From NCBI RefSeq assembly GCF_003464085.1, contig NZ_QSDR01000009.1, positions 73,974-137,973 of the forward strand: a DNA stretch of 64,000 nucleotides, written 5' to 3'. Below the pieces are notes generated by a model. That model searched no databases. It was not told the DNA's origin and was given only the letters and a program-made list of their open reading frames with translations. The DNA is from Clostridium sp. AM58-1XD (GTDB lineage Bacteria > Bacillota > Clostridia > Lachnospirales > Lachnospiraceae). Made by a program: the position numbers and the translations under genes. Positions 14,782 to 55,662 of this stretch are shown one piece after another (position 1 is the first letter of the stretch; the number at the start of each line of letters is the position of its first letter).

Positions 14782-16293
14782 TCATTTAAACGTCGGATTC
14801 AGCGCTTTTGTTATTTCAACATACTTCTTATAAACCTTATCATATATTTCCGCATTCTCCGGATTGGGATAATAGGTCTCCTTTATGGTTACAAACTTTT
14901 CCGAAGCAGCCTCGATAGACGGCCATATTCCGTTTGCCACACCTGCCAGAATCGCGCATCCCATGCACGGGGTGCTTTCACTGTTATGAATCACTTTAAC
15001 AGGAATCCCCAGGATATCCGCCTTGATCTGGCACCACGCTTTCGACTGAGACCCGCCGCCCAGCGAGCGGATCTCAGTCGCCGACGCGCCCAACTTTGCT
15101 TCGCATTCCAGCATCCGTCTGAGGGCGATGGCCAGTCCCTCCATAATGGCTCTGATGAAATGTCCCCTGGTATGCCCTGCATGGATTCCATAATAGACTC
15201 CATTTGCATTCTCATTCAGTTCCGGTATTCCGGAACCTTGAAAATAGGGGAGCATAATCAGCCCGTCCGCGCCGGGAGGCGTCGCTGTTACAAGTTCATC
15301 CATCTGCGTGTAGGCATTCAGTCCCGTCTTCTCCTCGATCTCCTTTTCCATCTCGCAGAATGTATCTCTGAACCATTTTACAATGATAGAGCCTGTGCAA
15401 TATGGCTGATACAGATATTTTCCCGGAATACCGCTGCAGAGCGCCGGAACCGAACCGTCCGAATCCTCATTCAGCCTGTCGATGGTTGCGACGGTCACAA
15501 GAGCGGATCCCGTACTCTCCGACGCCACTCCCGCCTTCACGTTGCCCGCCCCAATGGCGCCGCAGCCCTGGTCAAATGCCCCTACGTTGATCTTTGTCTT
15601 TGGATCAAGGCCGAATTCTTTTGCCGCCTCTGGGGTAATGACGCCCAGTTCCGTACCTGGGGCGGCAAGCTCCGGAAGATACTCCTTCCTGATTCCCACA
15701 AAATCAAGCATCTCCTGCCAGTAACATCGATTCGTGATGTCAAAATACCCGTGGTCGCTGGCAGTGGAATGATCGGTCACATACTTTCCCGTCAGCCGGT
15801 AGATAAAGTAATCCTTGATCTGAGCAAACATTCTGGTCTGTTCAAACACCTCCGGCATCTGATTCTTGACAGCCAGAATCTTGCTCACCGGATGAATCGC
15901 ATAAATTCCGTCGAAACCGATTTTACGGATGACCTCCTCTTTGCTGAATTTTGACGACAAGTATTCGGCTTCTTTTGTCGCTCTGGTATCCATCCATGCG
16001 ATTACCTTGCAGAGCGGCCGCTGATCCTGATCGAGAAATACACATGTCTCCGCCGTCGATGAAAAACCGGCACATGTTACATCCTTTACATCCACCCCGG
16101 CGTCCAGAATCGCTCCTCTGACCGAATTTGTAAAAGCGTCAATATATAGCTGAAGATCGGCCTCCACTTCTCCTGTAGGAAGCGTTGTGAGCGGATATTC
16201 ACTGGTTTTGCTGCCGTATATGTTCCCATCCTCTCCGATAACCGCGCCTTTTATCGCGGTGGTTCCTATATCTATTCCCAGAATATATTTCAT
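14782..16293 (-). CDS. FGGY-family carbohydrate kinase (xylulokinase-like)
   Basis: A 503-residue kinase with two FGGY domains. The N-terminal phosphate-binding motif is GIDIGTTAIKGAVI, the substrate region is IAWMDTRAT, and the catalytic base is expected in GAFDQGCGAIGAG near residue 235. The C-terminal FGGY signature is around EIRSLGGGSQSKAWCQIKADILG. FGGY enzymes phosphorylate sugars, sugar alcohols or related polyols; sequence alone does not give the substrate. It is the last gene of the catabolic operon, so a sugar-like product of the oxidative steps is plausible. Ribosome-binding site GAAGGAG is well placed. Confidence 0.88.
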   Translation of the reverse strand: MKYILGIDIGTTAIKGAVIGEDGNIYGSKTSEYPLTTLPTGEVEADLQLYIDAFTNSVRGAILDAGVDVKDVTCAGFSSTAETCVFLDQDQRPLCKVIAWMDTRATKEAEYLSSKFSKEEVIRKIGFDGIYAIHPVSKILAVKNQMPEVFEQTRMFAQIKDYFIYRLTGKYVTDHSTASDHGYFDITNRCYWQEMLDFVGIRKEYLPELAAPGTELGVITPEAAKEFGLDPKTKINVGAFDQGCGAIGAGNVKAGVASESTGSALVTVATIDRLNEDSDGSVPALCSGIPGKYLYQPYCTGSIIVKWFRDTFCEMEKEIEEKTGLNAYTQMDELVTATPPGADGLIMLPYFQGSGIPELNENANGVYYGIHAGHTRGHFIRAIMEGLAIALRRMLECEAKLGASATEIRSLGGGSQSKAWCQIKADILGIPVKVIHNSESTPCMGCAILAGVANGIWPSIEAASEKFVTIKETYYPNPENAEIYDKVYKKYVEITKALNPTFK

Positions 16294-16391
16294 CTCTTCT
16301 CCTTCTTACATCTCCTCTCCCTGTTTCGTCTCTTCTCTTTGATTGCCGGCACGGCTGCCGCATCAATCCCCGGTTCCGTGTCTTGTCCGCT

Positions 16392-17921
16392 TCAGCCTTG
16401 TCCGCTTTTGCCTTCGCCTGACTCTGCCTGAGACGAGATCACATCCGCATTAATTTCCATCCAGATGTCCGCGTTTTTTATCCCCAGTTTTTCAGGATTA
16501 AATACCGGCTCCACTCCGGAACGCCTCTGTTCTTTATAGTCTCTGTAGACCTTGACGATCGTGGGTGACATCAGTAAAAGAATGATCACATTGAACCATA
16601 CCATCAGTCCTACTCCCAGTTCTCCCGACGCAAAACTGGTGGATGATTTCTGAACCGCAAAATAGAAAAATACCAGAGGCATCGCTATTCTAAGCACCCA
16701 TATCATCCGCTTTCTGATATTCTGCGTTTTATTATAAAGAAGATAAGCGATTGCCGTCTCTCCCTGATAATAATAATTCAGCAGAGTGGTAAATGCAAAG
16801 AAGAACAAAAAGAATGCAAGGACTGTCGCGCCGATTCCCCCTGGGAAGATCGTATTAAGCGCCTCCTGCGCCCAGATGATTCCGGCCGAATCTTCTGCGG
16901 CCTGCTGAGCCATAATCGCAGACCCCTGCCCCAGGTGGAGTATGGTCCCATCCACCCCTTTTACATTGAAACAGTCTGTCAGAATGATGATCAGTCCTGT
17001 ACAGATGCACACGAACACGTCAATATATACGCTGAAAGAATTTACCAGGCCCTGTACTCCGGGATGCCTGCACTCGGTTGCGGAAGCTGCGGGAACTGCT
17101 TCTCCCATACCGGCTCCCGATGAATTTACGCTTCGTTTTACGCCCCAGAGAACCGCCGTTCCAAGCATGCCTCCGAACACAGCATCCACGCCGAACGCGC
17201 TGGTCACGATCGTGGAAAGCGCTGCGGGAAGTTCTTTGGCATCGATAATCAAAACAATAATTGTAAGAATGACAAATCCTATCGTCATAAAGGGAACTAC
17301 CATCTCCGCCGTCTTGGCGATTCTGCGGATCCCGCCTGAGATAACGATAAAAAGCAGGACCGCCGCAATCGCACCGGTGATGTATTGGGAGATACCCAGG
17401 CTGTTCTTAAATCCGCTGGTGATGGAAAACGCGTGCGGTGCAACGGTGAGAATCGGCACGCAGATTAATGTCATGGCAGCATAGATCAGAGCCAGCGGTT
17501 TAAATCCCAGCCCCCTCTGAATATAATAGTAAGCTCCGCCTCTGTATTCTCCATCCTGTTTAATCTTATAAACCTGTCCGAGAGCGCATTCTGCGTAGGA
17601 AATCGCCGTATCCAGAATCGATGTGATCAGCATCCAGAAAATAGCTCCCGGACCGCCGCTCCATACAGCCACCGCCACGCCGGCTACATTCGCCGTCCCG
17701 ACACGGTATCCGATTACCGTACAGAACGTGGCAAAAGGTGAAATCCCTGTATCCGAACCTCCGGAACTGAACAGAAGATGAATCTGATGCCCGATATTTC
17801 TTACCTGTACCCCTTCCAGCCGGATCGTAAAATAGATCGCCGACCCCAGAATCAGAAATATAATCGGGTTCGACCATACCAGATTATTTAATGTTACAAA
17901 TAGATTACTTAACCCCTCCAT
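16392..17921 (-). CDS. Sodium:amino-acid symporter, AGCS (alanine/glycine) family
   Basis: A 509-residue carrier with about 10-11 hydrophobic helices. Characteristic AGCS segments are visible: GNVAGVAVA-type loop (here GTANVAGVAVAVWSGGPGA), the segment GEYRGGAYYYIQRGLG, and VNSSGAGMGEAVPAASA. Typical members import alanine or glycine with Na+. Its place between the dehydrogenase subunits and the FGGY kinase suggests it imports the substrate of this pathway, perhaps an alanine/glycine-containing compound. AAAGGAG lies 7 nt before the ATG. Confidence 0.92.
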   Translation of the reverse strand: MEGLSNLFVTLNNLVWSNPIIFLILGSAIYFTIRLEGVQVRNIGHQIHLLFSSGGSDTGISPFATFCTVIGYRVGTANVAGVAVAVWSGGPGAIFWMLITSILDTAISYAECALGQVYKIKQDGEYRGGAYYYIQRGLGFKPLALIYAAMTLICVPILTVAPHAFSITSGFKNSLGISQYITGAIAAVLLFIVISGGIRRIAKTAEMVVPFMTIGFVILTIIVLIIDAKELPAALSTIVTSAFGVDAVFGGMLGTAVLWGVKRSVNSSGAGMGEAVPAASATECRHPGVQGLVNSFSVYIDVFVCICTGLIIILTDCFNVKGVDGTILHLGQGSAIMAQQAAEDSAGIIWAQEALNTIFPGGIGATVLAFFLFFFAFTTLLNYYYQGETAIAYLLYNKTQNIRKRMIWVLRIAMPLVFFYFAVQKSSTSFASGELGVGLMVWFNVIILLLMSPTIVKVYRDYKEQRRSGVEPVFNPEKLGIKNADIWMEINADVISSQAESGEGKSGQG

Positions 17922-17973
17922 GTTGTCTCTCCTTTCAGCGGCAGGAAGTACCGCTTACGTAACGATTACCATA

Positions 17974-18825
17974 TCACCAATCATGCTCAAAGAACTCTTC
18001 GTCGGCCTCGATCTCCAGAGAAGTATACCCCGTCAGTTTGATCGGACGCACCGGTCCCCTCTTGGTGGCCTGGGGAATCTGCGCCGGAGCTGTCTTTAAT
18101 TCCTGTGCAATAATCCGCTCGATCGTCTTTGCACAATTTCGCCCCTGGCAGAGTCCCATTCCCGCTCTCAACAGACGTTTCACCTCATTGACGCTGGTGG
18201 CCCCATTTCTGACCGCTTCGATTACTTCCTCTTTTGTGATCTCCTCACAGCGGCATACATACATCGTATCATCTTTTACGTCGTCTGTCGTAACCGGACT
18301 GGAAATTATTTCCTGATTTTCTTCCGCCATTCGTTTCTTATCTACAGAAAAGTTGCGGACCTTCATTCCGTACCCCTTCGGAATCTTCACTTCTACCACC
18401 GCTGTACGGTCATTTGCTCTGGTCATCACAATCCGCTGTACGGTCCCCATCACAAGAAACTCTCCCGCTCTGCTTAAACAGTATACCTCCTGCCCTTTTT
18501 CCGGGAGCGGATAGTATTCATAAGGCAGGGTGACCGTGTCAAAGTGCTCCCCGCTCTGATCCACCAGAAAGATTGCCTGCCCCGGACACAGCGCCACGCA
18601 TAAGCCGCAGCCAATGCATTTTTCCGTATCGATTACAGGAAGATTGGTAATCGGTTCCCCCACCGTGATCGCATGATGCGGACAAGCCGCTTCGCACGGA
18701 TTACAGGGAATATTCTGCCGACACTCGATCACGACGCATTTCTTACGGGCCAGGGTATCGTTTCCGGGAAAACCCGGAATATCCATAACCTCCTCCATCT
18801 CTAAATAACCGGTTTTAGCAAGCAT
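17974..18825 (-). CDS. Iron-sulfur subunit (4Fe-4S ferredoxin plus BFD-like 2Fe-2S) of amino-acid dehydrogenase complex
   Basis: 283 residues. The N-terminal part has two 4Fe-4S motifs: an unusual first cluster (CRQNIPCNPCEAACPH) and a standard one (CIGCGLCVALCPG). The C-terminal part, about 190-250, is BFD-like: CRCEE, then GMGLCQGRNCAKTI, the four-cysteine 2Fe-2S fold. Such subunits take electrons from FAD-dependent proline, hydroxyproline, opine or related amine dehydrogenases. It directly follows the alpha flavoprotein (59-bp gap) in the operon. AAGGTGAG precedes ATG 18825. Role as electron-transfer subunit is strongly supported; the electron acceptor is unknown. Confidence 0.85.
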   Translation of the reverse strand: MLAKTGYLEMEEVMDIPGFPGNDTLARKKCVVIECRQNIPCNPCEAACPHHAITVGEPITNLPVIDTEKCIGCGLCVALCPGQAIFLVDQSGEHFDTVTLPYEYYPLPEKGQEVYCLSRAGEFLVMGTVQRIVMTRANDRTAVVEVKIPKGYGMKVRNFSVDKKRMAEENQEIISSPVTTDDVKDDTMYVCRCEEITKEEVIEAVRNGATSVNEVKRLLRAGMGLCQGRNCAKTIERIIAQELKTAPAQIPQATKRGPVRPIKLTGYTSLEIEADEEFFEHDW

Positions 18826-18884
18826 TTTTTCTCACCTTCCATTCTTCCATCTGTCTGATAATCTCCTCCTTGGCCTCCGCGCGG

Positions 18885-19943
18885 CTAAACGAACGGGCCG
18901 GTTCTCAGTTGATTCAGAGAGTTCCAGACGTTTTGCTTTGCCTCTTTTGCCTCGTTTTCGTCCATCAGGCCGAGAGCCTCTGCAGCCGCGATACCTGCAA
19001 GTTTGCCCTCTTCAATCGCGGACGACGCTTCCTCCACTCCTGAAGAATCTCCTGCCACATAGATGCCGTCTTTCGTCGTCATCATATCGCGGTCATGCAT
19101 CGGAACCTGGGAGCCCAGTCTTCCTCCATTTACAAACACTACATCCGCCATAGACGGAAGGCCGATATCCGGCGTAAGACCCACTGCTATACCGATCGTG
19201 TCACATTCTATGAACTGTTCCGTACCTTTTACCGGCTGAAATCTGTCATCCACCTTGGCAATCACAGCTCCCTTTATTCCGCTCAAATCCTCATTCGGAA
19301 CCGCTTCCAAAATGGTATGCCCTGTATACATGGGAACTCCCGCTCTTCTCACCTTTGCAGAATGTACCCCATACCCGCCTACGGTCGGCGCCGCTTCGAC
19401 AACCCCCGCCACATCCGCTCCTGACTGAAGAAGCTGATAGGTCACGATCAGGCCCACATTGCCGGAGCCGATCATCAGCACTTTTTTTCCCACCGGCACC
19501 CGGTGCACGTTAATCATCGTCTGGATCGCCCCCGCTCCTACCACACCCGGCAGGGTCCATCCTGGAAATGCCAGCGGGTTCTCTGAAGCCCCTGTCGCCA
19601 TAATTACTTTCTTTGGATGTACGATTACACCTGTTTCCCCATGTACCGCAAGCGCCACGCCCTCATCATTGGGATAGATCCCGTAGGCTACCGTGTCGAG
19701 CATAACCTCAACACCGAGTTTCTGTACTTCCTCCAAAAGTTCCGTCCCTATATCCACGCCTCTGACTCCCGCTTTATGTCTTCTGGAGCCGAAGAACTTG
19801 TGGATTTGCTTAAAAAGCTGTCCGCCTGGTTTGCTGTTCTCATCCACCACCAGCACTTGTGCGCCGCATTTTGCCGCCTCAATGGCTGCGGAAAGTCCTG
19901 CCGGTCCTGCGCCGATGATCAGAATATCTATTACGTCCTTCAT
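18885..19943 (-). CDS. FAD/NAD(P)-binding alpha subunit of amino-acid dehydrogenase complex (HcnB/OoxA/LhpE-like)
   Basis: The 352-residue flavoprotein has an N-terminal FAD Rossmann motif (ILIIGAGPAGLSAAIEAA), a CxxC-free core, an NAD(P)-type dinucleotide fold (VLMIGSGNVGLIVTYQLLQSG), and the C-terminal GIYVAGDSSGVEEASSAIEEG FAD loop. This is the pattern of the alpha subunits of HcnABC, opine oxidases and D-hydroxyproline or proline dehydrogenases. ATG 19943 is chosen because GGGAGGGG precedes it; the stop of the small 2Fe-2S gene overlaps it as ATGA. A longer in-frame reading would overlap that gene extensively. Substrate not determinable. Confidence 0.88.
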   Translation of the reverse strand: MKDVIDILIIGAGPAGLSAAIEAAKCGAQVLVVDENSKPGGQLFKQIHKFFGSRRHKAGVRGVDIGTELLEEVQKLGVEVMLDTVAYGIYPNDEGVALAVHGETGVIVHPKKVIMATGASENPLAFPGWTLPGVVGAGAIQTMINVHRVPVGKKVLMIGSGNVGLIVTYQLLQSGADVAGVVEAAPTVGGYGVHSAKVRRAGVPMYTGHTILEAVPNEDLSGIKGAVIAKVDDRFQPVKGTEQFIECDTIGIAVGLTPDIGLPSMADVVFVNGGRLGSQVPMHDRDMMTTKDGIYVAGDSSGVEEASSAIEEGKLAGIAAAEALGLMDENEAKEAKQNVWNSLNQLRTGPFV

Positions 19944-20260
19944 TTCGACCCCTCCCATTTTCCAAGACCATCCTGTGTCTCTATCCTCATTCCGTCTTCC
20001 ACAGGAGTGATACATGTGCGGACGTTCGGGTCTCCGTTCACCGTCATGACACAGTTGGTGCACCGCCCGATTCCGCAGAAATATCCCCGCGGCTCATGTT
20101 TTTTTGCACTGATGTTCTGAACCTTGATCCCGGCCGCCAGAAGCGCAGCCAGAATTGGTTCTCCTTCCCTTGCGGATATTTCCTTTCCGTCTACCGTGAT
20201 CCGGACCTCTCTTGCCTCTTCCAGATCGCCTAATATAATATGATTTTCTATTCTGGACAT
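19940..20260 (-). CDS. Small 2Fe-2S ferredoxin-like gamma subunit
   Basis: A 106-residue Fer2_4-type protein. The cysteine pattern is CGIGRCTNC (C-x4-C-x2-C) with the fourth cysteine in NVRTCITPV, as in plant-type 2Fe-2S domains of sarcosine oxidase alpha N-termini and HcnA/LhpF-like subunits. It would carry electrons within the dehydrogenase complex. Its stop overlaps the alpha-subunit start as ATGA, indicating translational coupling. A hairpin in the 123-bp gap upstream may adjust its expression relative to the beta subunit. Confidence 0.88.
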   Translation of the reverse strand: MSRIENHIILGDLEEAREVRITVDGKEISAREGEPILAALLAAGIKVQNISAKKHEPRGYFCGIGRCTNCVMTVNGDPNVRTCITPVEDGMRIETQDGLGKWEGSK

Positions 20261-20309
20261 CTCATTTCCTCCAAATTTCCCGTATCAATATCCCTATCCG
20301 TGAACTTTT

Positions 20310-20349
20310 AAAAATAGTAAGGCTCGAAAGGGCCTTGCCAACTATTTTT
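20310..20349 (-). terminator. Intra-operon hairpin with U-run (attenuator or processing site)
   Basis: AAAAATAGTAAGGC (20310-20323) pairs with GCCTT plus ACTATTTTT (20332-20336 and 20341-20349), leaving a 4-nt bulge. Read on the minus strand the hairpin is followed by TTTTTAAAAG. It lies between the beta-subunit gene and the downstream electron-transfer genes, so it could terminate a fraction of transcripts or define an mRNA end. Confidence 0.5.
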
Positions 20350-20383
20350 CATGTATCGTACGTAAGCGCCCAGAGGACAGGCA

Positions 20384-21465
20384 TTACGTGCTCGCAACAT
20401 TAAAGTATTCCTCTCCTTTGATACATTTGATTAAATGCGCAGCTGCCGCAGGTCCGATGGCATATCCGCAGAAGCCGGTAACTGCATAGTAAATTCCCGG
20501 ATGGTTTTCAACCTCCCCGATGTACGGAAGTCTCTCCGGAGTAAATCCTTCAAAACCGGACCAGCTTCTCAATATATTGAGTTTGCTGATGGATGGAATG
20601 ATGTCCTGCGCTTCTCTCACGTTGAAGCAAAGTCCGTTGATGGAAACATCCTTTCTGTCGCTGGTCTCCAGGTCGCCGTATCCTTCTCTTCCTCCGCCGA
20701 TCAGGAGGAGCCTTCGGCCGTCTGCTTCATCGTCAGTGTCGGAGTCGTAATGGTATAGTCGATGAAATGGGGCGCTTTCTCAGTAACCGTGATCATGTTG
20801 TGTTTTTCTTCCAGTTCGATATGTACGCCCAGCGGATCTAATAATTTAGGAGAACGGATGCCGCAGGTAATAAGCACCTTGTCGGCCCGGAACGCTTCAT
20901 TGTCGGAATATGCCAAATACCCCTTTCCGTCCTCTGCCGGTTCGATCTTTGTAATGACCTGGTGATCCATAAATTCTGCGCCCAGCTTCTTTGCCGCCAT
21001 CAGGATATTGACTCCCGCTTTCAGCGGATTCGAGTATCCTGACATGGGACTGAAGTTTGCCGCGATGACATTTTCACATATGTAAGGGACTTTTTCGTGC
21101 ACCTGTTCTTTAGTCAGGCGTTCTACCGGAAGCCCGTTTAACGCAAATCGTTCCTCCTGCTCGTCCAGAAGATGGAGATCTTCCTCACGCAAAATGCAGA
21201 ATAACCCGCCGGTGCGGTGGTACCCCACATCAATTCCCTCTTTATTCTGAAACTGATCCCACAATTCTGCAGACAGTTTATGCAGGGGAAGGGAGCGGGG
21301 CGGCTGCTGGAGAAGCTCCAGCCCGCCTGCATTTACACCCGACGCCTCGTTACACGGATACGTCCTGTCTACAATCATTACCTTCTTATTATCTTTTGCG
21401 AGAAAATACGCTGCGCTGCAGCCCACGATTCCCGCGCCGATAATCAAATATTCTGCTTGCTTCAC
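20384..21465 (-). CDS. DadA/SoxB-like FAD amino-acid oxidoreductase (beta subunit), frameshifted in this sequence
   Basis: The catalytic D-amino-acid-oxidase-like flavoprotein starts with FAD motif LIIGAGIVGCSAAYFLA and has the conserved ASGVNAGGLE segment. The C-terminal end (RSWSGFEGFTPERLPYIGEV, then GFCGYAIGPAAAAHLI) lies in another frame. The break is near 20712-20718; changing GAAGGCTCC to GAAGGGCTCC restores one 360-residue frame reading ...LLLIGGGREGYGDLE. GTG at 21465 is taken as the start because AGGAGGAG lies 6 nt upstream. With the gamma, alpha and ferredoxin genes it forms a proline/hydroxyproline/opine-dehydrogenase-like complex oxidising an amine. Confidence 0.85.
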
Positions 21466-21481
21466 GAGAAACTCCTCCTTT

Positions 21482-22397
21482 TTACTCCTTTGACAGCGCA
21501 GCAATGTTGCTCCACTTGAGCACAAGTTTCTTTTCTTCCTCCGTCAGTCCGCGGCGGGGACGGCGGCATATGCCCTCCTCAAATCCATAAACCTCCTGAA
21601 GGATATATTTCACGGCCTGAGTCGGTTTCGGGAAACGTTCCGTCATGTTGACTACGGGATATAACTTCTTATACAGTTCAAGTCCCTTCTGATAGTCCTT
21701 TTCAACAATCATCGCGTTATGGAACATAGCTGATAATTTCGGCAGAATGTTTGCCGTCATGCTGATCCATCCGATTGCGCCTGTCGCATACGCCTGATAC
21801 AGGAGATAATCACAGCCGCAGAGCACGCCCACATCCTCCGTCTGATCAGCCTCGAAGATAAAGTCAGTCATGATATCGATCTCCATGGAGGCGTCTTTTA
21901 CGATCCGCACATGCTCCAGTTTATATAATTCCCGCATCGTTTCCGTGGTAATCCCCGATGTGACGTCGGATTATTGTAGACCATGATGTCCAGCCCGGAG
22001 TGGTCGTTGATATAGGTGTAGTGGTCGATGATCTCACTCTGAGACTGTCCGTAGTAGAAGGACGGAAGGACCATAGCCGCGTCCGCTCCCGCTTCCCGGG
22101 CATTTTCCATCAGCTCTACCACATCCTCCACGCGTTCTCTGGAGCGCCGATGATTACGGAGGCGCCCTTTGCCTTTATGTACGGCACCATCTCATTCACA
22201 TACGCCTTATGCTCTTCTAAGGACATGCTCTGATACTCTCCGGCTGCCATCAGGACGCCGATCCCGCCGATTCCGTTCTCGATCATCCAGTCCGCGTGCT
22301 TCTTTGCCGCTTCGTAGTTAAAACTTCCGTCTTCGTACATCGGTGTGACCATTGCCGGAAATACATGGGTAAATTTGCTCATATCTTCTCTTTTCAT
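21482..22397 (-). CDS. DHDPS/N-acetylneuraminate lyase family protein, two frameshifts in this sequence
   Basis: Three overlapping pieces together give a 305-residue class I aldolase of the DapA/NanA family. N-terminal part: VFPAMVTPMYEDGSFNYE and MAAGEYQSMSLEE, equivalent to the GTTGE substrate loop. Middle: MVYNNPT with the catalytic tyrosine. C-terminal part: VRIVKDAS with the Schiff-base lysine. Breaks are near 22134-22137 and 21964-21968; one base at each restores the frame. Members cleave or form 2-keto acids, or deaminate pyrroline-4-hydroxy-2-carboxylate. Here it probably acts on the product of the neighbouring dehydrogenase. Start ATG 22397 has AAAGGA upstream. Confidence 0.85.
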
Positions 22398-22446
22398 CGT
22401 TTTATTTTCCTTTCTTATTCCTGTGATTTTGATGTGATTTCAATGT

Positions 22447-22518
22447 TGGTTTCCTCTTGTATTGGAGTGGAGTTGACCTTATCTGGTTTCCTCTTATTTG
22501 GTTTTGACCTTATTCTGG
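22447..22518. repeat. Imperfect tandem duplication in operon spacer
   Basis: Two copies of a unit containing TGGTTTCCTCTT, then TTGACCTTAT and TGG, at about 22447-22485 and 22484-22518; the second is about 4 nt shorter. They fill most of the 134-bp gap between the TIM-barrel and aldolase genes. Confidence 0.55.
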
Positions 22519-22531
22519 GATTGATATCGTG

Positions 22532-23206
22532 TCAGTGATTGATATAGTTCAGAACAAATTCCAGATTTTCACGGAAGGTACCGCCCTTTACGAAGTTTCC
22601 GTTAAACAGTGCGCTGCCCATGGTATATTCGGCCACTCCGATCTCTTTCATAAGATCCATCCGTTCCTCACTGCCGATACTTCCGGCGATGCAGACTTTA
22701 TCCGCCCCGACAGCCTGTACCAGCGCTTTGGTCAGTTCAATGGGATCTCCGTCCGTATAACGGTATGCCGTAAGATCTACGCCGTCCGCTCCGCTTGCAA
22801 CCGCTTTTTTTGCCGACTCGATTACGGAATCGATCGTGCCCGTAAGCGCTACCGGACTGCCTCCTACGTTTCCGACAAAAGGATAGTATTTTAAATCGTG
22901 TGCTTTCGCAAATTCAAATACGGAGTCAAATGGCAACGTTCCCGTCAGATAATCAAATCCGCATTCATCAGCGAGCTTCGCTCCCTCCAGGCATCCTTCT
23001 TCGGTGTAGGTGACAACTTCGAGATATGTCTCTTTTCCCGCGCCTTTCATCTTTTCGGCAAGAGCTTTCATCTTCTCTTTTTCAAGGCCGACGTCCTTAA
23101 ACCCCCACTTCTTAACCGGAAGGTCCTTGCAGGAGTCAAAAACCGCTTCCGCATCGGAGACTGTGATATCGTTGTTTGTCAGCATGATAATGATCTCTGG
23201 ATTCAT
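22532..23206 (-). CDS. TIM-barrel protein of unknown function (first gene of catabolic operon)
   Basis: A 224-residue beta/alpha-barrel protein. Repeating strand-helix units are visible (VKKWGFKDVGL, ETYLEVVTY, FDYLTGTLPF, KYYPFVGNVGG, GADGVDLTAYRY, KVCIAGSIGSEER), and the last resembles the phosphate-binding turn of HisA/HisF- or DeoC-like barrels. I cannot assign a reaction. Its position as the first gene, ahead of an aldolase, a flavin dehydrogenase complex and a sugar kinase, suggests an epimerase, isomerase or aldolase acting on a phosphorylated intermediate. GAGGAGAAC lies upstream of the ATG. Confidence 0.75.
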   Translation of the reverse strand: MNPEIIIMLTNNDITVSDAEAVFDSCKDLPVKKWGFKDVGLEKEKMKALAEKMKGAGKETYLEVVTYTEEGCLEGAKLADECGFDYLTGTLPFDSVFEFAKAHDLKYYPFVGNVGGSPVALTGTIDSVIESAKKAVASGADGVDLTAYRYTDGDPIELTKALVQAVGADKVCIAGSIGSEERMDLMKEIGVAEYTMGSALFNGNFVKGGTFRENLEFVLNYINH

Positions 23207-23243
23207 CTCTCTTGTTCTCCTCTCTGTAATTCCTGATAATCCG

Positions 23244-23272
23244 ATTATAAGCGTTTTAATTATTTTTTACAA
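23244..23272 (-). promoter_or_regulatory. Predicted promoter of the catabolic operon
   Basis: Minus strand: TTGTAA, 17-bp spacer, perfect TATAAT, ending 38 bp before the TIM-barrel start codon. One copy of the direct repeat described next overlaps its spacer. Confidence 0.65.
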
Positions 23273-23298
23273 TCGTTTTTGATCGTTTTAATTATTTT
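23252..23298. promoter_or_regulatory. Direct repeats, candidate DeoR operator
   Basis: CGTTTTAATTATTTT occurs twice (23252-23266 and 23284-23298), exactly 32 bp apart, about three helical turns. Shorter ATCGTTTT copies occur nearby (from 23272 and 23407). One repeat covers the spacer of the catabolic promoter. The layout fits cooperative binding by the divergent DeoR-family regulator. Confidence 0.55.
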
Positions 23299-23425
23299 CA
23301 GTTATTATCGACAACTTATAATCCATTTTTTTGTGTAAAATCACTTTGTTTTTCCTTTTTTCAATCATTATTTGTGATTTATCGCCAATCATTCATCGTT
23401 TATAATCGTTTTTCTGCTTTTTCAC

Positions 23426-23454
23426 TTGTTTTATTCCTCCGTATCGTCTATAAT
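23426..23454 (+). promoter_or_regulatory. Predicted deoR promoter
   Basis: TTGTTT, 17-bp spacer, TATAAT on the plus strand. Transcription would begin near 23461 and give a leader of about 170 nt that contains the duplicated hairpins at 23474-23570. Confidence 0.5.
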
Positions 23455-23473
23455 GATACTCGTAGGGCAGTCT

Positions 23474-23570
23474 GTATTTCAGGCCCTTCGGGCCGGCGCG
23501 CTTCGCGCGATAAGGTTTACCCGAGGGTACCCCCGTATTTCAGGCCCTTCGGGCCGGCGCGCTTCGCGCG
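23474..23570 (+). repeat. Duplicated 36-bp double-hairpin unit in deoR leader
   Basis: A 36-bp unit is present twice without change (23474-23509 and 23535-23570), 61 bp apart. Each unit encodes two adjacent GC hairpins with TTC loops: GGCCC-TTC-GGGCC and CGCGC-TTC-GCGCG. The 25-bp spacer contains the palindrome GGGTACCC. GC content is far above that of the surrounding AT-rich spacer. The units lie in the predicted 5' leader of deoR and could act as pause, stability or attenuation elements. Confidence 0.8.
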
Positions 23571-23630
23571 GTAAAGTTTAATTAAAACAGTGGTTTGTGC
23601 AGGCAGACAATAGAGAAAGGGAGTTGGCAA

Positions 23631-24443
23631 ATGTCAAAAACAGCAATTACACAGTTTCCGGAAGAGCGGGAACAGATTGTCATGGATTTCTTACAAAAGC
23701 AGGGGAAGATTCGCGTATCGGAAGTGATCGATTTGTTAGGGATCTCGCCGTCCACCGCGCGTCTGCTGCTTCAGAAGATGGATGACAGGGGGCTGCTCCA
23801 GAGAACGCACGGAGGCGCAGTCATGGTAAATCAGGCCGCCCCTCCGAAGCATCAGAGGGATTATGAACATATTGAGAATAGAGAAAAGAAAATGCAGATT
23901 GCAGCCGCAGCCGCCAAGACGGTTAAAGATGGTGACTTTATTGCGCTGGGCAGCGGAACGACCACATTTTTAATGTCCACGCTGCTTCACGATAAGCAGG
24001 AACTTACGATTGTCACGGATTCCATTCCGATCGCCTATGAACTCAGAGGTATCGAACAGATCACTTTGTATGTATGCGGCGGATGGATTATGCACCGTAA
24101 CAGCGCCTGCCGCGGAATTAATGCCGAAAATTTCTTTAAGGGCCTGAGTGCCGTCGACAAATCCTACTGCGGCACGGATTCCCTCCACCCGGAGTTCGGA
24201 ATGACCTCCGTAGATTTCGATCCCAGAACTGAGGCCGCCGTATGCCGGATTGGCAAAGAACGTTATATATTGGCCGATTCTACCAAGTTCCATATCCGGC
24301 CGTATATTAACAAGGTGACGGAACTGAACGAGATACAGCATGTGGTCTCGGATGCCGCGCTGGAGAAAGAGTATATTACCGCCCTGGAAAAAGCCGGCGT
24401 CCATGTGATAATAGCAGACACGGAATATACTCCTGGATATTAA
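23631..24443 (+). CDS. DeoR/GlpR-family transcriptional regulator
   Basis: 270 residues. The N-terminal helix-turn-helix reads REQIVMDFLQKQGKIRVSEV...LGISPSTARLLLQKMDDRGL, and the family RTHGGAV segment follows it. The C-terminal DeoRC effector domain has the sugar-phosphate-binding GSGTTTFLMSTLL loop. Such repressors usually sense phosphorylated sugars. It is divergent from the catabolic operon and the obvious candidate regulator. ATG 23631 is chosen over an upstream in-frame ATG because GAAAGGGAG lies 8-9 nt before it. The predicted link to an FGGY kinase product fits the sugar-phosphate effector of this family. Confidence 0.92.
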   Translation: MSKTAITQFPEEREQIVMDFLQKQGKIRVSEVIDLLGISPSTARLLLQKMDDRGLLQRTHGGAVMVNQAAPPKHQRDYEHIENREKKMQIAAAAAKTVKDGDFIALGSGTTTFLMSTLLHDKQELTIVTDSIPIAYELRGIEQITLYVCGGWIMHRNSACRGINAENFFKGLSAVDKSYCGTDSLHPEFGMTSVDFDPRTEAAVCRIGKERYILADSTKFHIRPYINKVTELNEIQHVVSDAALEKEYITALEKAGVHVIIADTEYTPGY

Positions 24444-47600: not shown

Positions 47601-48068
47601 GGATACATCTCTCATCATCTGATCCAGAGCACCTTCTACCTCCGGAATCACATATTTTCCGTTGATATGATAGAGAATCCTGTATGTATTTTTCGTCAGA
47701 TTGAGTTCGAACAGTTCGTCATAAACGGAGATATTCGTCAGATTATAGAACAGATTTTTATTGCCTTCTCTGATCTCTTTAACCATAATAACCGTGCAGC
47801 TGCCTGATCCCGGCCACTCAATATTCCCGCTGTCCACTTCCAGCCACTTCTGCATAATCTTATTATAGAACATGACGGATTCCGTTTCCCGCCGCTCGAG
47901 CGGGCAGCCCCTGCAAGGTTCCTCTTCATCGCAAAATACCCGATAACAGACATCCCCCTTTTTCAGGCGCGCAAAAATCGCCTGTACTTTTTTATTAAAA
48001 GATACGACATGGTATTGATCGTCGATTACGTAAATCCCTGCTTCTTCATTATCAGCACATCTGCCCAT
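44649..48068 (-). CDS. PAS-GGDEF(degenerate)-EAL-PAS protein, cyclic-di-GMP phosphodiesterase candidate
   Basis: 1139 residues. An N-terminal PAS region has a cysteine-rich loop (CYRVFCDEEEPCRGCPLE). A second PAS-like region spans about 110-240, GGDEF about 255-415, EAL about 420-670, and two or three further PAS domains run to the C-terminus. The GGDEF motif reads GGDDF, so cyclase activity is doubtful. The EAL domain has ESL in place of EAL but keeps the catalytic residues: EITESAYSEE, DDFGSGYSSLNML, KIDMKFL and AEGVET. It probably degrades c-di-GMP. No transmembrane segment is visible. The cyclase gene downstream may be its counterpart. Confidence 0.88.
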   Translation of the reverse strand: MGRCADNEEAGIYVIDDQYHVVSFNKKVQAIFARLKKGDVCYRVFCDEEEPCRGCPLERRETESVMFYNKIMQKWLEVDSGNIEWPGSGSCTVIMVKEIREGNKNLFYNLTNISVYDELFELNLTKNTYRILYHINGKYVIPEVEGALDQMMRDVSDYMIHPDDREGFLAFWNLNSIFDRASMGKENQVLRGQFRKRMQTGEYCWVSQIVVPLFNERQSDHIVMCFIQDINDQKIKERKTAEQNSLLETGKDRLTGLYRRNIFFNEAEQFLKQHRGVKYCLMAIDIEHFKLFNEWYGQEEGDQFLVGIGRQLGKLQDENRGIAGYMGGDDFVIILPDDKKLLNELQERIIGLVRQYGDNAGFFPAFGIYVIEEETISVSTMYDRAAIALESVKGNYAQRVCVYDSRMMKKMEENHLLLSEVQRALENREFTFYLQPQCDMTNGKIVGMESLVRWNHPKRGMIPPGDFIPILEKNGFITNLDIYVWDTVCSHVRRWIDRGRRPIPVSINVSRVDIYTLDIVECLRGLVKKYDLEPRLIEVEITESAYSEEYQIISGVIENLRKAGFLVLMDDFGSGYSSLNMLKDVNVDVLKIDMKFLNMTEQSAGKGVGILETITSMARFMGLKLIAEGVETKEQMDFLVNMGCLYGQGYYLHRPMPIDMCEAILEDESNIDFRGIRGKIIDRLRIKELLNDDIFSETMMNNILGGIGLYEACGREIKLLRVNEQYYKVTGMNPVDLEEGKKNILEAVYQEDYGTILHIFSEAYRNQLKGAEGDVRRYKGDGSVVWIHFRAFFLREQDGRKLYYGSISDVSEQKQKEKRLEASQRALAAVVNVSNKDRAFMRLTEENRRAAAAIFAQMSPGGMIGGYCEDGFPLYFANYEMVKLLGYDSYEELEQAIDGKVINTIHPDDREQVARDIGPEYYPGLEYTTTYRMPKKDGTWFWSLDKGKIVQAEDGRLAIVSACTDISEPMMARQQLAERNALLTEKNQELYFLNNDMPGGYHRCARTPDYDFTYISSRFLEIFGYTRKEITEIFGDKFMNMVHPDDRKKVDMGVEYLKENGSGYSIEYRMMSKKGYIWVVDQSQYMEYGGRTFLQGVIMDVTETVKLRNRMKVLMKEMQADKSRADKSPYRHGARLKKE

Positions 48069-48176
48069 ACATTTACCATCCTATGCCAGTTTATGGTCAA
48101 TATCTCACATTATCTTTCACAATTATATCTCTTTTTTGTATATGGCCGTCAATCTTTATGTCGATTCGTGTACATC

Positions 48177-48467
48177 AAAAATCCCCGCGCTTTTCGGGCG
48201 CGGGAAGGGAATCGGCTTGACCTGGCAGTCAATCCGCAGCAAAAATCCCCGCGCTTTTCAGGCGCGGGGAGGGAATCGGCTTGGCCTGGCGGTCAATCCG
48301 CAGCAAAAATCCCCGCGCTTTTCGGGCGCGGGAAGGGAATCGGCTTGACCTGGCGGTCAATCCGCAGCAAAAATCCCCGCGCTTTTTTGGCGCGGGAAGG
48401 GAATCGGCTTGACCTGGCGGTCAATCCGCAGCAAAAATCCCCGCGCTTTTCGGGCGCGGGGATTTTT
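48177..48467 (-). repeat. 64-bp tandem repeat array of terminator hairpins after ftsZ
   Basis: Four full 64-bp units plus a partial fifth start at 48177, 48241, 48305, 48369 and 48433. Each unit has a hairpin CCCCGCGC-loop-GCGCGGG. On the minus strand it ends GCGCGGGGATTTTT, an intrinsic terminator. A second small hairpin TTGACC-tggc-GGTCAA lies in each unit. Loops vary between copies (TTTTCGG, TTTTCAG, TTTTTTG). ftsZ is upstream on this strand and the GGDEF/EAL gene downstream, so five terminators in series separate them. Confidence 0.9.
48433..48467 (-). terminator. ftsZ-proximal terminator (fifth array copy)
   Basis: AAAAATCCCCGCGC pairs with GCGCGGGGATTTTTTT. This is the only copy with A/T runs on both sides. 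It begins one base after the ftsZ stop codon. Confidence 0.9.
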
Positions 48468-49743
48468 TTAGTTCTTTTTATTTCGATCCTGGAGGAAGGA
48501 TGGGATTACGATTCCTTCACGGTTAATCTGTCTGTTATATCCGCCGGACGGGTTTGTCTTCTGGCCGGAGGCCGCAGGCGCCTGTCCGCCTCCCTGGCGC
48601 GGCTGAGCCTGTGTATTAAAGGACTGTTTTCCATACCCCTGCTGAGAAGGCGCTGCTGCCGGCTGCTGATAGGAATGATTTGCCGTTGCTGCTGCCTCTG
48701 CTGAAGAAGACGGCATCTTTGGAGCCAGCTTCTTATATGGATTCGGGTTGCTGAAATCTTTCATTACTTTAGATACAGGCGTGCTGATCAAAGTCTTGTC
48801 CGTAAGACCTGTTGCGATAACGGTAATTGTAGCCTCATCCTGTGCATTTTCATCGTACATAGCACCGAAGATGATATTTGCCTCGTCGCCTGCCAGCTCC
48901 TGAACGTAGCTTGCAGCTTCATTGGCTTCAATCAGGCTGATATCTCCGGAAATATTAATGATGACATGGCTTGCGCCTCAATCGTGGTCTCAAGAAGCGG
49001 GCTGGATACTGCCTGCTCTACTGCTTCCTTGGCCTTTTCGTCGCCTTTGCATGGCCAATGCCGATGTGAGCGATGCCCTTGTCCGTCATAACGGTCTGAA
49101 CGTCAGCAAAATCTAAGTTAATCAGCCCCGGAACATTGATCAGATCTGTTATCCCCTGAACGGCCTGCTGAAGAACCTCATCTGCTTTCTTAAGAGCTTC
49201 AGGCATGGTTGTCCTTCTGTCTACGATTTCAAGAAGTTTATCATTCGGAATTACAATCAGGGTATCCACACTCTCTTTCAAGTTCTCAATTCCCTGAAGT
49301 GCATTGGACATACGTGTTTTCGCTTCAAAGCGGAACGGTTTTGTAACCACTCCTACTGTGAGAATCCCCATATCTTTTGCAATTTTGGCTACAACAGGAG
49401 CAGCGCCGGTACCTGTACCGCCGCCCATACCGCAGGTCACGAACACCATATCCGCACCTTTCATGGCCTGTGCCAGTTCTTCAGAACTCTCTTCCGCAGC
49501 TTTCTCGCCGATCTCAGGCTTTGCTCCTGCTCCGAGTCCCTTTGTAAGCTTCTCGCCGATCTGCATCGCCGTAGGAGCCTTGCAGAACTGCAATGCCTGC
49601 TTGTCCGTGTTAATACCAATGAATTCCACACCGGCGATATTCTCATCAATCATTCTGTTAACGGCATTATTTCCTGCACCGCCTACACCAATTACAATAA
49701 TCCTCGCAGCATTTTCAGCCTCATTTATTTTAATCTCTAACAA
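48468..49743 (-). CDS. ftsZ: Cell division protein FtsZ, two frameshifts in this sequence
   Basis: The reconstructed 425-residue tubulin homologue has [14 protein letters not shown], the GTP-binding tubulin signature [10 protein letters not shown], the T7-loop segment [11 protein letters not shown], and a C-terminal peptide [16 protein letters not shown] after a Q/A/P-rich linker. Two breaks interrupt it: near 49044-49049 (AAGGCGAC, repaired AAGGGCGAC) and near 48975-48980 (GAGGCGCA, repaired GAGGGCGCA). As FtsZ is essential and the protein is otherwise complete, these must be sequence errors. The start is TTG 49743 with AAAGGAGG 9 nt upstream. It has its own promoter and ends at the terminator array. 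Confidence 0.93.
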
Positions 49744-49819
49744 GAATATATCCTCCTTTAACTTCTCACTATCTATCTTCGCTATAACGCTATGAATGTA
49801 CTTTTTGACCTTATCTTAT

Positions 49820-53187: not shown

Positions 53188-54543
53188 TTACAAGCTTTTT
53201 ACGCATTCCTTAAAAATGCGCCCGCGCTCTTCATAGTTCTTAAACATGCCCCAGCTGGCACATGCAGGAGAAAGCAGGACGTTGTCGCCCATATCCGCGT
53301 AAGAGGCACATACGTGAACCGCCTCTTCCAGATCTTCTGCGTACATGATTTCCGTAAAGCCGTGAGCTTTTGCGCAATCCGCGATTTTATCTCTTGTCTG
53401 TCCGATGAGAACCAGGTATTTCACCTTACCTTCAAAGCTCTCAATCCATTCGTCATACTGGGCGTTCTTATCGTAACCGCCCGCGATCAACAGGGTCGGT
53501 CCCGGCATGGCCTTGATCGCCTGAATTGCCGCATCCGGATTCGTTCCCTTGGAGTCATTGTAATACTTCACGCCTGCCCGTTCCAGAACAAATTCGATTC
53601 TGTGCTCCACGGCTGTGAAGTCTTTTACCACCTGCTGTATGTTCTTCATCGGCACTCCCATAGCCAGGGATACGCCGACGGCAGCCATCACGTTTTCATG
53701 GTTGTGACGACCCAACAGCTTTAAGTCATGAACGTTTACCACTTCTGTTTCCTTGCCGCCTCTGCGGTACATAATCGTGTCTCCGTCCAGATAAATGCCC
53801 TCCGCCAGCCTTTCGTGGCTGCTGAAGAATACGACCTTCGGTTTCAGTTCTTTTCTCTGCCCGAATTCTCTCAGGATTTCATCATCGTAATTCAATACAC
53901 ATGTATCTTCTTCCGTCTGGTTTATGGTGATGCTCTCTTTTACCGCCACATAGCACTCCATCGTCTTGTGACGGTCCAGATGATCCGGCGTAATATTGAG
54001 AATGGCGCTTACGTTCGGCCTGAAATCCATAATCGTCTCCAGCTGGAAGCTGCTCACTTCCGCTACCGTTACGGAATCGTCTTCTGTCAGAAGCGCTTCC
54101 TGCGTATACGGCGTGCCGATATTGCCCACCACATGAACATCGCTGTAAAACGACTTCATTATTTCGCCTACTAGAGCTGTCGTCGTAGTCTTGCCGTTCG
54201 TCCCCGTTATCGCAGCAAGTTTCCCTCTGGCACACTGGTAAGCCAGCTGAATTTCACTCCAAATCGGAATCTTCACCTCGTCCAGCACGGCCACAAACGG
54301 CGCTTCCAGCGGTATACCCGGGCTGATAATACACAGTTCCACTCCCAACAGGTCGCTGCGCTTCAAATCTCCCAAAACCACGTCGACTTTCGCCGTTTTA
54401 TCAAAATTGTCTCTTATTTTTACTTCATCCAAATCTGCGTTGCTGTCATAGAGGACAACTTCGCCTCCCATCTCCAGAAGCAGTTTTGCTGCGGCGATTC
54501 CGCTTTTGCCTGTTCCTGCAACAATCACTTTCTGACTACTCAT
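53188..54543 (-). CDS. murD: UDP-N-acetylmuramoyl-L-alanine:D-glutamate ligase
   Basis: A 451-residue Mur ligase adding D-Glu. It has an N-terminal UDP-binding Rossmann segment (VIVAGTGKSGIAAAKLLLEMG), the ATP P-loop ITGTNGKTTTTALVGE, the central metal-binding segment LNITPDHLDRH and the C-terminal YNDSKGTNPDAAIQAIKA. Length is typical. AGGAGGG lies upstream of the ATG. It follows mraY by 14 bp. Confidence 0.95.
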   Translation of the reverse strand: MSSQKVIVAGTGKSGIAAAKLLLEMGGEVVLYDSNADLDEVKIRDNFDKTAKVDVVLGDLKRSDLLGVELCIISPGIPLEAPFVAVLDEVKIPIWSEIQLAYQCARGKLAAITGTNGKTTTTALVGEIMKSFYSDVHVVGNIGTPYTQEALLTEDDSVTVAEVSSFQLETIMDFRPNVSAILNITPDHLDRHKTMECYVAVKESITINQTEEDTCVLNYDDEILREFGQRKELKPKVVFFSSHERLAEGIYLDGDTIMYRRGGKETEVVNVHDLKLLGRHNHENVMAAVGVSLAMGVPMKNIQQVVKDFTAVEHRIEFVLERAGVKYYNDSKGTNPDAAIQAIKAMPGPTLLIAGGYDKNAQYDEWIESFEGKVKYLVLIGQTRDKIADCAKAHGFTEIMYAEDLEEAVHVCASYADMGDNVLLSPACASWGMFKNYEERGRIFKECVKSL

Positions 54544-54557
54544 GTCCTTTTTCCCTC

Positions 54558-55525: not shown

Positions 55526-55662
55526 GTCGCACCTCTATCGTATATGTATTATAACTGTTCCGTACGGCATTGCCGTTATGAACAGCTACTATGTATTTAT
55601 GGCGTGGATCAGTGCTGAAAAAAGCCACACAGTCAATAGTATACGTCTTTTTTCCGGAATAA

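What the first reader, a model, noticed from the sequence alone, without database searches (positions are those of the whole stretch)
14782..24443. DeoR-controlled catabolic operon joining an amine dehydrogenase complex to a sugar kinase
Transcription order is TIM-barrel, DapA/NanA-like aldolase, DadA-like FAD subunit, 2Fe-2S subunit, FAD/NAD(P) subunit, 4Fe-4S/BFD subunit, AGCS symporter and FGGY kinase, with a divergent DeoR regulator. The four-part enzyme resembles proline, hydroxyproline and opine dehydrogenases, yet the kinase and sugar-phosphate-type regulator point to a sugar moiety. Hypothesis: uptake of an amino-acid-sugar conjugate (opine or Amadori-type), oxidative C-N cleavage, then phosphorylation and aldol cleavage of the sugar part. 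The TIM-barrel role is unknown. I know of no described pathway with exactly this set.
Basis: partly seen in the sequence, partly recalled or inferred. Interest (0 to 1): 0.75.

Follow-up and report, generated by a model that had tools for sequence, protein, structure and literature searches.

The report
Amine dehydrogenase joined to sugar-kinase module
A gut bacterium carries a set of eight linked genes, also found in several related gut bacteria, that seems to split an amine-linked nutrient and feed its sugar-like part through a kinase and an enzyme family that has no known function yet; the actual nutrient is not known.

Summary
The genes are real and in the order stated. Two (dapA-like, dadA-like) are cut by three frame changes; ftsZ and mraY are cut likewise, so assembly error is likelier than decay. 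The grouping is not chance: all eight genes stay linked, in different orders, in five other genomes of two families. The redox genes carry three of four published motifs of the opine / D-hydroxyproline / L-proline dehydrogenase family, so an N-substituted amino acid is a likely substrate. The DapA-like protein keeps the Schiff-base lysine but not the DHDPS signature. The main new result concerns the TIM barrel: a large family without a Pfam entry, with an FGGY kinase within 8 kb in 52 of 80 fetched loci (about 0.04 expected per locus). Its modelled fold is nearest HPS/OMPDC/KGPDC and KDPG-aldolase barrels. Best reading: dehydrogenase and DapA-type lyase release a polyol or sugar fragment, which kinase and TIM barrel then degrade. 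Against it: kinase and barrel also occur without a dehydrogenase, and Clostridium scindens may have the dehydrogenase without them.

The parts
22532..23206 (-). TIM-barrel protein, 224 aa, no Pfam family; uncharacterised family that often accompanies FGGY kinases; first gene of the operon
   Evidence: (0 Pfam families)
21482..22397 (-). DapA/NanA-superfamily lyase, broken by two frame changes in this assembly (pieces 22116-22397, about 21931-22128, 21482-21937)
   Evidence: full-length relative L002
20384..21465 (-). DadA-like FAD subunit (DAO fold, catalytic beta subunit), broken by one frame change near 20701
   Evidence: full-length relative L002
19940..20260 (-). 2Fe-2S subunit (Fer2_4), gamma subunit of the dehydrogenase
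   Evidence: C-x4-C-x2-C-x12-C
18885..19943 (-). FAD/NAD(P) subunit (Pyr_redox_2, sarcosine-oxidase-alpha-like)
   Evidence: two GxGxxG
17974..18825 (-). 4Fe-4S + BFD-type [2Fe-2S] subunit
16392..17921 (-). AGCS (sodium:alanine/glycine) symporter
   Evidence: TIGR00835 334.5 bits, over its cut-off 272.65
14782..16293 (-). FGGY carbohydrate kinase; best NCBIfam model xylulokinase but below that model's cut-off (331.1 against 380.25 bits)
23595..24443 (+). divergent DeoR-family regulator (a later ATG at 23631 is a likely start)
23234..23431 (-). A+T-rich intergenic stretch with AAAACGAT-type repeats, candidate DeoR operators; AAAACGATTA is shared by 4 of 5 upstream regions compared (a weak signal)

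Best explanation
A DeoR-controlled catabolic unit for a secondary-amine compound (an N-substituted or cyclic alpha-amino acid) that carries a polyhydroxy (sugar or polyol) part. AGCS takes it up with sodium; the four-gene flavin/iron-sulfur dehydrogenase of the opine/D-hydroxyproline/L-proline dehydrogenase type oxidises the C-N bond; the DapA-type lyase (Schiff-base lysine kept) processes the imine or keto-acid product; the FGGY kinase phosphorylates the polyhydroxy fragment; and the TIM-barrel enzyme, probably a new member of the ribulose-phosphate-binding barrels, acts on that phosphate (lyase, decarboxylase or isomerase through an enediolate) to give a central sugar phosphate. Shown by sequence: the parts, their families and motifs, their linkage, and the TIM-kinase association. 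Inferred: the order of steps, the reaction of each enzyme and everything about the substrate.
For: Linkage of all eight genes in five other genomes with different orders: kinase at the operon end (L002, L101, L003), upstream of DeoR (L001), between TIM and AGCS (L005). Among the metagenome protein clusters listed for DadA (85 of 86 rows), TIM (best 120) and kinase (best 120), the same longest contig occurs 13 (DadA-TIM), 8 (DadA-kinase; 3 of the 8 are distant kinases of 44% identity) and 14 (TIM-kinase) times, the window counted once in each, against means of 0.44, 0.34 and 0.52 by shifted lengths. Dehydrogenase motifs: GxGxxG in both flavoproteins, C-x4-C-x2-C-x12-C in the 2Fe-2S subunit, R-x-W in the catalytic subunit (motif list from PMC4575208, passages). 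Best PDB sequence match of the L002 catalytic subunit is 1y56_B, E 5.7e-25, which I recall as the beta subunit of P. horikoshii L-proline dehydrogenase (the PDB copy names it sarcosine oxidase). TIM-kinase association: 52 of 80 TIM loci have a kinase-cluster member within 8 kb, 40 of 80 in one co-directional run, 25 of those 40 adjacent; 117 FGGY_N matches, fragments included, in 46.8 Mb of ten genomes give about 0.04 per 16 kb. The phosphate-binding part of the TIM profile resembles HisA/PriA (E 2.7e-6, profile 155-208). Streptomyces locus L021 has TIM, kinase, an Amino_oxidase-domain flavoprotein, a DapA-family gene and AGCS, with a kinase from the same 9-row clade as ours.
Against: TIM+kinase occur with a permease and no dehydrogenase in the same gene run in L004 (whose kinase scores 922 bits against ours), L016 and L022. 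The C. scindens DadA homologue P0144 (82% to L002, 295 contigs) shares its longest contig with none of the 120 listed TIM or 120 listed kinase rows; in all, 67 of the 85 DadA rows find no partner, though only the longest contig of each cluster is listed. L003 and L005 use a kinase of another FGGY clade (204 and 200 bits) and no DeoR gene was found there. The flavoprotein of L021/L040/L065 is best matched in NCBIfam by non-amine enzymes, tested on L065, so its role as an amine oxidase is doubtful. In 28 of 80 TIM loci no such kinase lies within 8 kb, some of them on short contigs. The BFD cysteine spacing is 32, not the 15-20 of the published family. There is no substrate evidence of any kind.
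Confidence: 0.45

Rival explanations
1. Two separate catabolic jobs share one operon: an N-substituted amino-acid dehydrogenase with AGCS and DapA, and a free polyol or sugar pathway of kinase plus TIM barrel.
For: Kinase+TIM run without a dehydrogenase in L004, L016, L022 and other loci; C. scindens may have the dehydrogenase without them; the kinase clade differs between operons with the same dehydrogenase.
Against: Linkage kept through three different gene orders and in the co-contig test; the five high-identity DadA loci that I could read with flanks (L001, L002, L003, L005, L101) all have TIM and kinase, but four of the five were found through TIM.
Confidence: 0.25
2. The substrate is a hydroxylated cyclic amino acid (hydroxyproline, hydroxypipecolate or an imino-sugar acid). 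The dehydrogenase makes the ring imine and the DapA-family enzyme deaminates it, as in the D-hydroxyproline route, and the kinase acts on the hydroxylated chain.
For: D-hydroxyproline dehydrogenase belongs to the same enzyme family (PMC4575208, passages); a DapA-family enzyme follows it in that route (recalled); catalytic subunit of L002 nearest to 1y56_B.
Against: No racemase/epimerase or aldehyde dehydrogenase gene among the operon genes; the known route needs no kinase (recalled); TIM and kinase occur with many unrelated importers.
Confidence: 0.15
3. The amine is an Amadori or mannityl-opine conjugate, split oxidatively to amino acid and an osone-type sugar, which kinase and TIM barrel degrade.
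For: Opine dehydrogenases belong to this family; oxidative (amadoriase) and kinase-deglycase routes for fructosamines are both described (PMC12632257, passages); the importer is of an amino-acid type.
Against: Nothing specific supports it: no SIS-type deglycase or PfkB-type kinase domain was found in the operon proteins (that frlB and frlD are of these families is recalled).
Confidence: 0.1
4. The operon in this organism is decaying: the three frame changes are real.
For: Frames change twice in the DapA-like and once in the DadA-like gene.
Against: ftsZ and mraY, which should be essential, are broken in the same way in the same window; the other six operon genes are open.
Confidence: 0.05

Closest known systems
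Flavin-containing opine / D-hydroxyproline / L-proline dehydrogenases (OdhABC, D-HypDH, archaeal L-ProDH; PMC4575208, passages read)
   Same: DAO-fold catalytic subunit with GxGxxG and R-x-W, small 2Fe-2S subunit with C-x4-C-x2-C-x12-C, FAD subunit with GxGxxG, BFD-type cysteines
   Different: Four genes, where the proteobacterial enzymes have three (the passages mention a delta subunit for archaeal L-ProDH); BFD cysteines on a separate 4Fe-4S protein with spacing 32 instead of 15-20; joined to DapA, AGCS, kinase and TIM barrel
E. coli yia operon: lyxK (FGGY kinase by family, recalled; annotated L-xylulose kinase) directly followed by sgbH (3-keto-L-gulonate-6-phosphate decarboxylase) (L120)
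   Different: No detectable sequence kinship of the barrels beyond the C-terminal part (hhalign probability 0.65% against the single SgbH sequence); no amine dehydrogenase
Fructosamine (frl) operons: importer, kinase, deglycase (PMC12632257, passages read)
   Same: Logic of importer, kinase and one further enzyme for an amine-linked sugar
   Different: Here an FGGY kinase, a TIM barrel and an oxidative complex
D-hydroxyproline catabolism (dehydrogenase plus DapA-family deaminase; second part recalled)
   Same: Same dehydrogenase family and a DapA-family partner
   Different: Kinase, TIM barrel and DeoR regulator; no epimerase or aldehyde dehydrogenase gene in the operon

Membership tests
Opine/D-hydroxyproline/L-proline dehydrogenase family | ADP-binding GxGxxG at the N-terminus of both flavin subunits | tested here: met
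   GAGIVG and GAGPAG in the window and in L001, L002, L003, L005, L101
Opine/D-hydroxyproline/L-proline dehydrogenase family | [2Fe-2S] motif C-x4-C-x2-C-x11~12-C in the small subunit | tested here: met
   CGIGRCTNCVMTVNGDPNVRTC in the window, L001, L003, L005, L101; the L002 gene, seen, fell out of my gene list and was not tested
Opine/D-hydroxyproline/L-proline dehydrogenase family | R-x-W for FMN in the catalytic subunit | tested here: met
   RSW in the second frame piece of the window (seen; my cut of that piece was out of frame) and in the five open relatives
Opine/D-hydroxyproline/L-proline dehydrogenase family | second [2Fe-2S] motif C-x-C-x15~20-C-x4-C | tested here: not met
   C-x-C-x32-C-x4-C on a separate protein in the window; none of the six has the published spacing; Pfam Fer2_BFD above cut-off
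Opine/D-hydroxyproline/L-proline dehydrogenase family | amine dehydrogenase activity with dye | not testable with these tools
   needs purified protein
Dihydrodipicolinate synthase (DapA proper) | Schiff-base lysine and partner tyrosine (residue roles recalled) | tested here: met
   L002 VKDAS and YNNP align to VKEAS and YNVP of 3flu; VKDA in the window and all five relatives, YNxP in the window and four of five, not in L005
Dihydrodipicolinate synthase (DapA proper) | TTGE motif and the arginine after YNVP (recalled as DHDPS signature) | tested here: not met
   no TTGE-type motif in the window or five relatives; AAGE in window, L001, L002, L005, neither in L003 and L101; valine in place of the arginine in L002; TIGR00674 150.8 bits against cut-off 206.15 for L002
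Xylulokinase (TIGR01312) | curated score cut-off 380.25 bits | tested here: not met
   331.1 bits; none of the 12 NCBIfam models matched reached its cut-off
KGPDC/HPS/OMPDC barrels | fold | tested here: inconclusive
KGPDC/HPS/OMPDC barrels | sequence kinship with a member | tested here: inconclusive
   hhalign with the single E. coli SgbH sequence: probability 0.65%, C-terminal part only; one sequence is a weak template
HisA/PriA | sequence kinship over the whole barrel | tested here: inconclusive
   only the phosphate-binding part matches (profile 155-208; hhalign probability 19.9% over 62 columns with the single E. coli HisA, out of register)

The most novel reading that the evidence does not exclude
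The TIM-barrel protein founds a new enzyme class of the ribulose-phosphate-binding barrels that, with FGGY kinases, forms an undescribed and widespread pathway core for amine-linked polyols or sugars; this operon is the version in which an anaerobic amine dehydrogenase unlocks the substrate.
Probability: 0.35. Interest if true: 0.7.

Novelty: new variant of a known kind. Interest (0 to 1): 0.48.

Why it matters
A conserved but unnamed enzyme family (1623 homologues at E <= 0.001) often sits next to sugar kinases, in six phyla among the loci fetched. Solving its reaction would let many hypothetical genes be named and would define how some gut bacteria use an amine-linked nutrient, possibly a glycation product or a host- or plant-derived conjugate. 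Claveliimonas bilis c-25 (L002) and Agathobaculum massiliense Marseille-P4005 (L005) hold the set, so it can be tested.

Tried and rejected
Standard hydroxyproline route: rejected as such, because the operon has no racemase or aldehyde-dehydrogenase gene and has a kinase. Pseudogene reading: judged unlikely because ftsZ and mraY are broken alike. Whole-genome search of the window's own assembly: none is held. RNA families and tRNAs: none found in the window. TIM barrel as HisA, KGPDC or KDPG aldolase: not supported by sequence, and fold alone does not separate them. Sequence search of the PDB with the single TIM sequence gave nothing significant, best E 0.037.

Check of co-conservation by DadA or DapA rather than TIM: DadA at E <= 1e-40 in 15 of 397 genomes drawn from the family of G001, two of them at high identity (the query genome G001, and G148 at 86%) and 13 with only about 30% relatives; 3 of 391 (the query genome and two about 30%); at E <= 1e-60 2 of 87 (G004 and G002) and 1 of 2 (G148); at E <= 1e-100 2 of 345 and 1 of 344; DapA at E <= 1e-45 in 2 of 398, the query genome and one 32% relative. 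Samples overlap and in many genomes only five first-look candidates were scored. So the operon is rare among species, and G148 is the one case found through DadA alone; the others were found through TIM, which biases the count. Of the 17 matches of about 30% I fetched 13 with flanks: all 13 show the FAD/NAD, ferredoxin and DAO genes, 11 also the 2Fe-2S gene, and none shows this DapA, TIM or kinase over 20 bits.

Operator search: AAAACGATTR occurs twice in the window, both upstream of the TIM gene, but 9 of 100 shuffles hold as many; kept only as a hint. Papers: in the rows listed by nine searches I saw no described pathway with this set; only listings were seen, of an open-licence library.

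Rows dropped: 3 of 55 kinase-cluster members under 440 aa were left out of the tree, and one fused frame (L021) was cut to its last 510 residues. Cluster names rest on one scanned member each. The TIM alignment A2 holds 47 of the 80 loci and 8 database proteins.


Full report
What is there. Nine genes at 14782-24443 match the finding. From the DeoR promoter region the minus strand reads TIM barrel, DapA-like, DadA-like FAD protein, 2Fe-2S protein, FAD/NAD protein, 4Fe-4S+BFD protein, AGCS symporter, FGGY kinase. The DapA-like gene changes frame twice and the DadA-like gene once. In the same window ftsZ changes frame twice and mraY once, so I read these as assembly errors. The window's own genome is not held.

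Is the grouping real. A scan of genome contigs with an alignment of the TIM family gave 97 relatives, of which the best 80 were kept. Four of these 80 loci carry all eight genes: L001 (Lachnospiraceae MAG), L002 (Claveliimonas bilis), L003 (Butyricicoccus MAG) and L005 (Agathobaculum massiliense). A fifth, L101 in G148, came from a search with the DadA protein. Gene order differs: the kinase lies at the 3' end (L002, L003, L101), ahead of the regulator (L001), or between TIM and AGCS with the dehydrogenase genes first (L005). The regulator is seen in L001, L002 and L101 only. As a second test I compared the longest contig of each metagenome protein cluster listed for DadA, TIM and kinase: equal lengths occur 13, 8 and 14 times for the three pairs, the window counting once in each, against means of 0.44, 0.34 and 0.52 when lengths are shifted by up to 25 either way. 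Three of the 8 DadA-kinase coincidences involve distant kinases (44%), a shared contig is not adjacency, and 67 of 85 DadA rows find no partner, the lists being capped at 120 and giving one contig per cluster. The operon is rare among species: high-identity DadA in 2 of 397, 1 of 391, 2 of 87, 1 of 2, 2 of 345 and 1 of 344 genomes in overlapping samples, query genomes included.

The dehydrogenase. The published family of flavin-containing opine, D-hydroxyproline and L-proline dehydrogenases has GxGxxG in two subunits, a [2Fe-2S] motif in a small subunit, a second cysteine motif and an R-x-W in the catalytic subunit (PMC4575208, passages). The window has the first, second and last of these, as do the relatives tested; the second cysteine motif has spacing 32 instead of 15-20 and sits on its own protein. 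The L002 catalytic subunit is nearest in the PDB to 1y56_B and then to glycine oxidases. An alpha-amino-acid type amine is therefore likely; which one is open.

The DapA-like gene. It keeps the Schiff-base lysine, and in the window and four of five relatives the YNxP tyrosine, but lacks the TTGE motif and, in L002, the arginine of true DHDPS, and it scores under the DapA cut-off. It is a DapA-superfamily lyase of unknown reaction. In a sample of 398 genomes of the phylum only the query genome and one 32% relative matched at E <= 1e-45.

The TIM barrel and the kinase. The TIM protein matches no Pfam family and has 1623 homologues at E <= 0.001; the three of the 120 listed that bear a name are called 'hypothetical protein'. 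Within 8 kb of it an FGGY-kinase cluster member lies in 52 of 80 loci; in 40 of 80 both lie in one co-directional run, 25 of the 40 adjacent. The loci are related to one another and so not independent. Ten genomes hold 117 FGGY_N matches, some of them fragments, in 46.8 Mb, so about 0.04 would be expected in 16 kb. The kinases come from Bacillota, Chloroflexota, Actinomycetota, Pseudomonadota, Planctomycetota and Thermodesulfobacteriota. Where no FGGY kinase was found near it, the TIM gene can sit with other phosphorylating systems: a DUF1537-type kinase with PdxA (L041, L042, both short contigs) or a galactitol-type PTS (L060, L063, L073, L075). That fits an enzyme acting on a phosphorylated polyhydroxy compound. 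Importers vary: AGCS, EutH, amino-acid permease, branched-chain-type ABC, sugar-type ABC, TRAP and an NCS1-type permease; several are usual for amino acids or amines. Cluster names rest on one scanned member each.

Closest kinase relatives. In a quick tree the window's kinase groups with L001, L002, L101 and L004 (100% SH-aLRT) and, in a 9-row set (98%) whose inner order is unresolved, with kinases of Streptomyces, Sinomonas, Rhodococcus and Paracoccus loci. The three actinobacterial loci have TIM, kinase and an Amino_oxidase-domain flavoprotein in a row; L021 and L040 have AGCS nearby and L021 a DapA-family gene. This would be a second version of the same parts list built with a different flavoprotein, but NCBIfam does not call that flavoprotein an amine oxidase (tested on L065), so I weigh it lightly. 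L003 and L005 use another kinase clade.

Reading. The best single account is uptake, oxidative C-N cleavage, lyase step, phosphorylation, then TIM-barrel conversion (0.45). The chief rival is two jobs in one operon (0.25): L004, L016 and L022 run TIM+kinase with a permease and no dehydrogenase in the same gene run, and the C. scindens DadA homologue (82%, 295 contigs) has no listed TIM or kinase on its longest contig; its neighbourhood could not be fetched.

Literature. In the rows listed by searches I saw no description of this set. Passages were read of PMC4575208, PMC12632257, PMC3245297 and PMC11968277; all other papers were seen as search listings only.

Noticed in passing
window 23474-23580: A G+C-rich 46-nt element occurs twice (96% alike), each copy holding two short perfect hairpin-like palindromes, in the otherwise A+T-rich gap between the DeoR gene and the operon; its 30-nt core was found nowhere else in the window with up to 3 mismatches.
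   Followed up: partly
window 48500-49760 and 54500-55560: ftsZ changes frame twice and mraY once, pointing to indel errors in this assembly.
   Followed up: yes
window 48009-48704: A short reading frame holds several near-identical copies of one segment, suggesting an intergenic DNA repeat array.
   Followed up: no
L117 166-14617 (G148); compare L030 2426-14433: A second TIM system, 56-94% identical gene by gene to loci L023, L024, L028 or L030: DeoR, HAD phosphatase, FGGY kinase, glycerol-1-phosphate-dehydrogenase-like protein, then a GlpO2/BFD-type dehydrogenase gene group divergent from TIM, EutH, a DUF5050-type protein and a second FGGY kinase.
   Followed up: partly
L006, L008, L009, L010, L011, L012, L013, L037: A family of about 447 aa without Pfam match, distantly like sulfoquinovose isomerase (103.7 bits, tested on L012, far below that model's cut-off), neighbours the TIM gene in 8 of 80 loci.
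   Followed up: partly
L060, L063, L073, L075: The TIM gene directly follows galactitol-type PTS genes, with no FGGY kinase found in these loci.
   Followed up: partly
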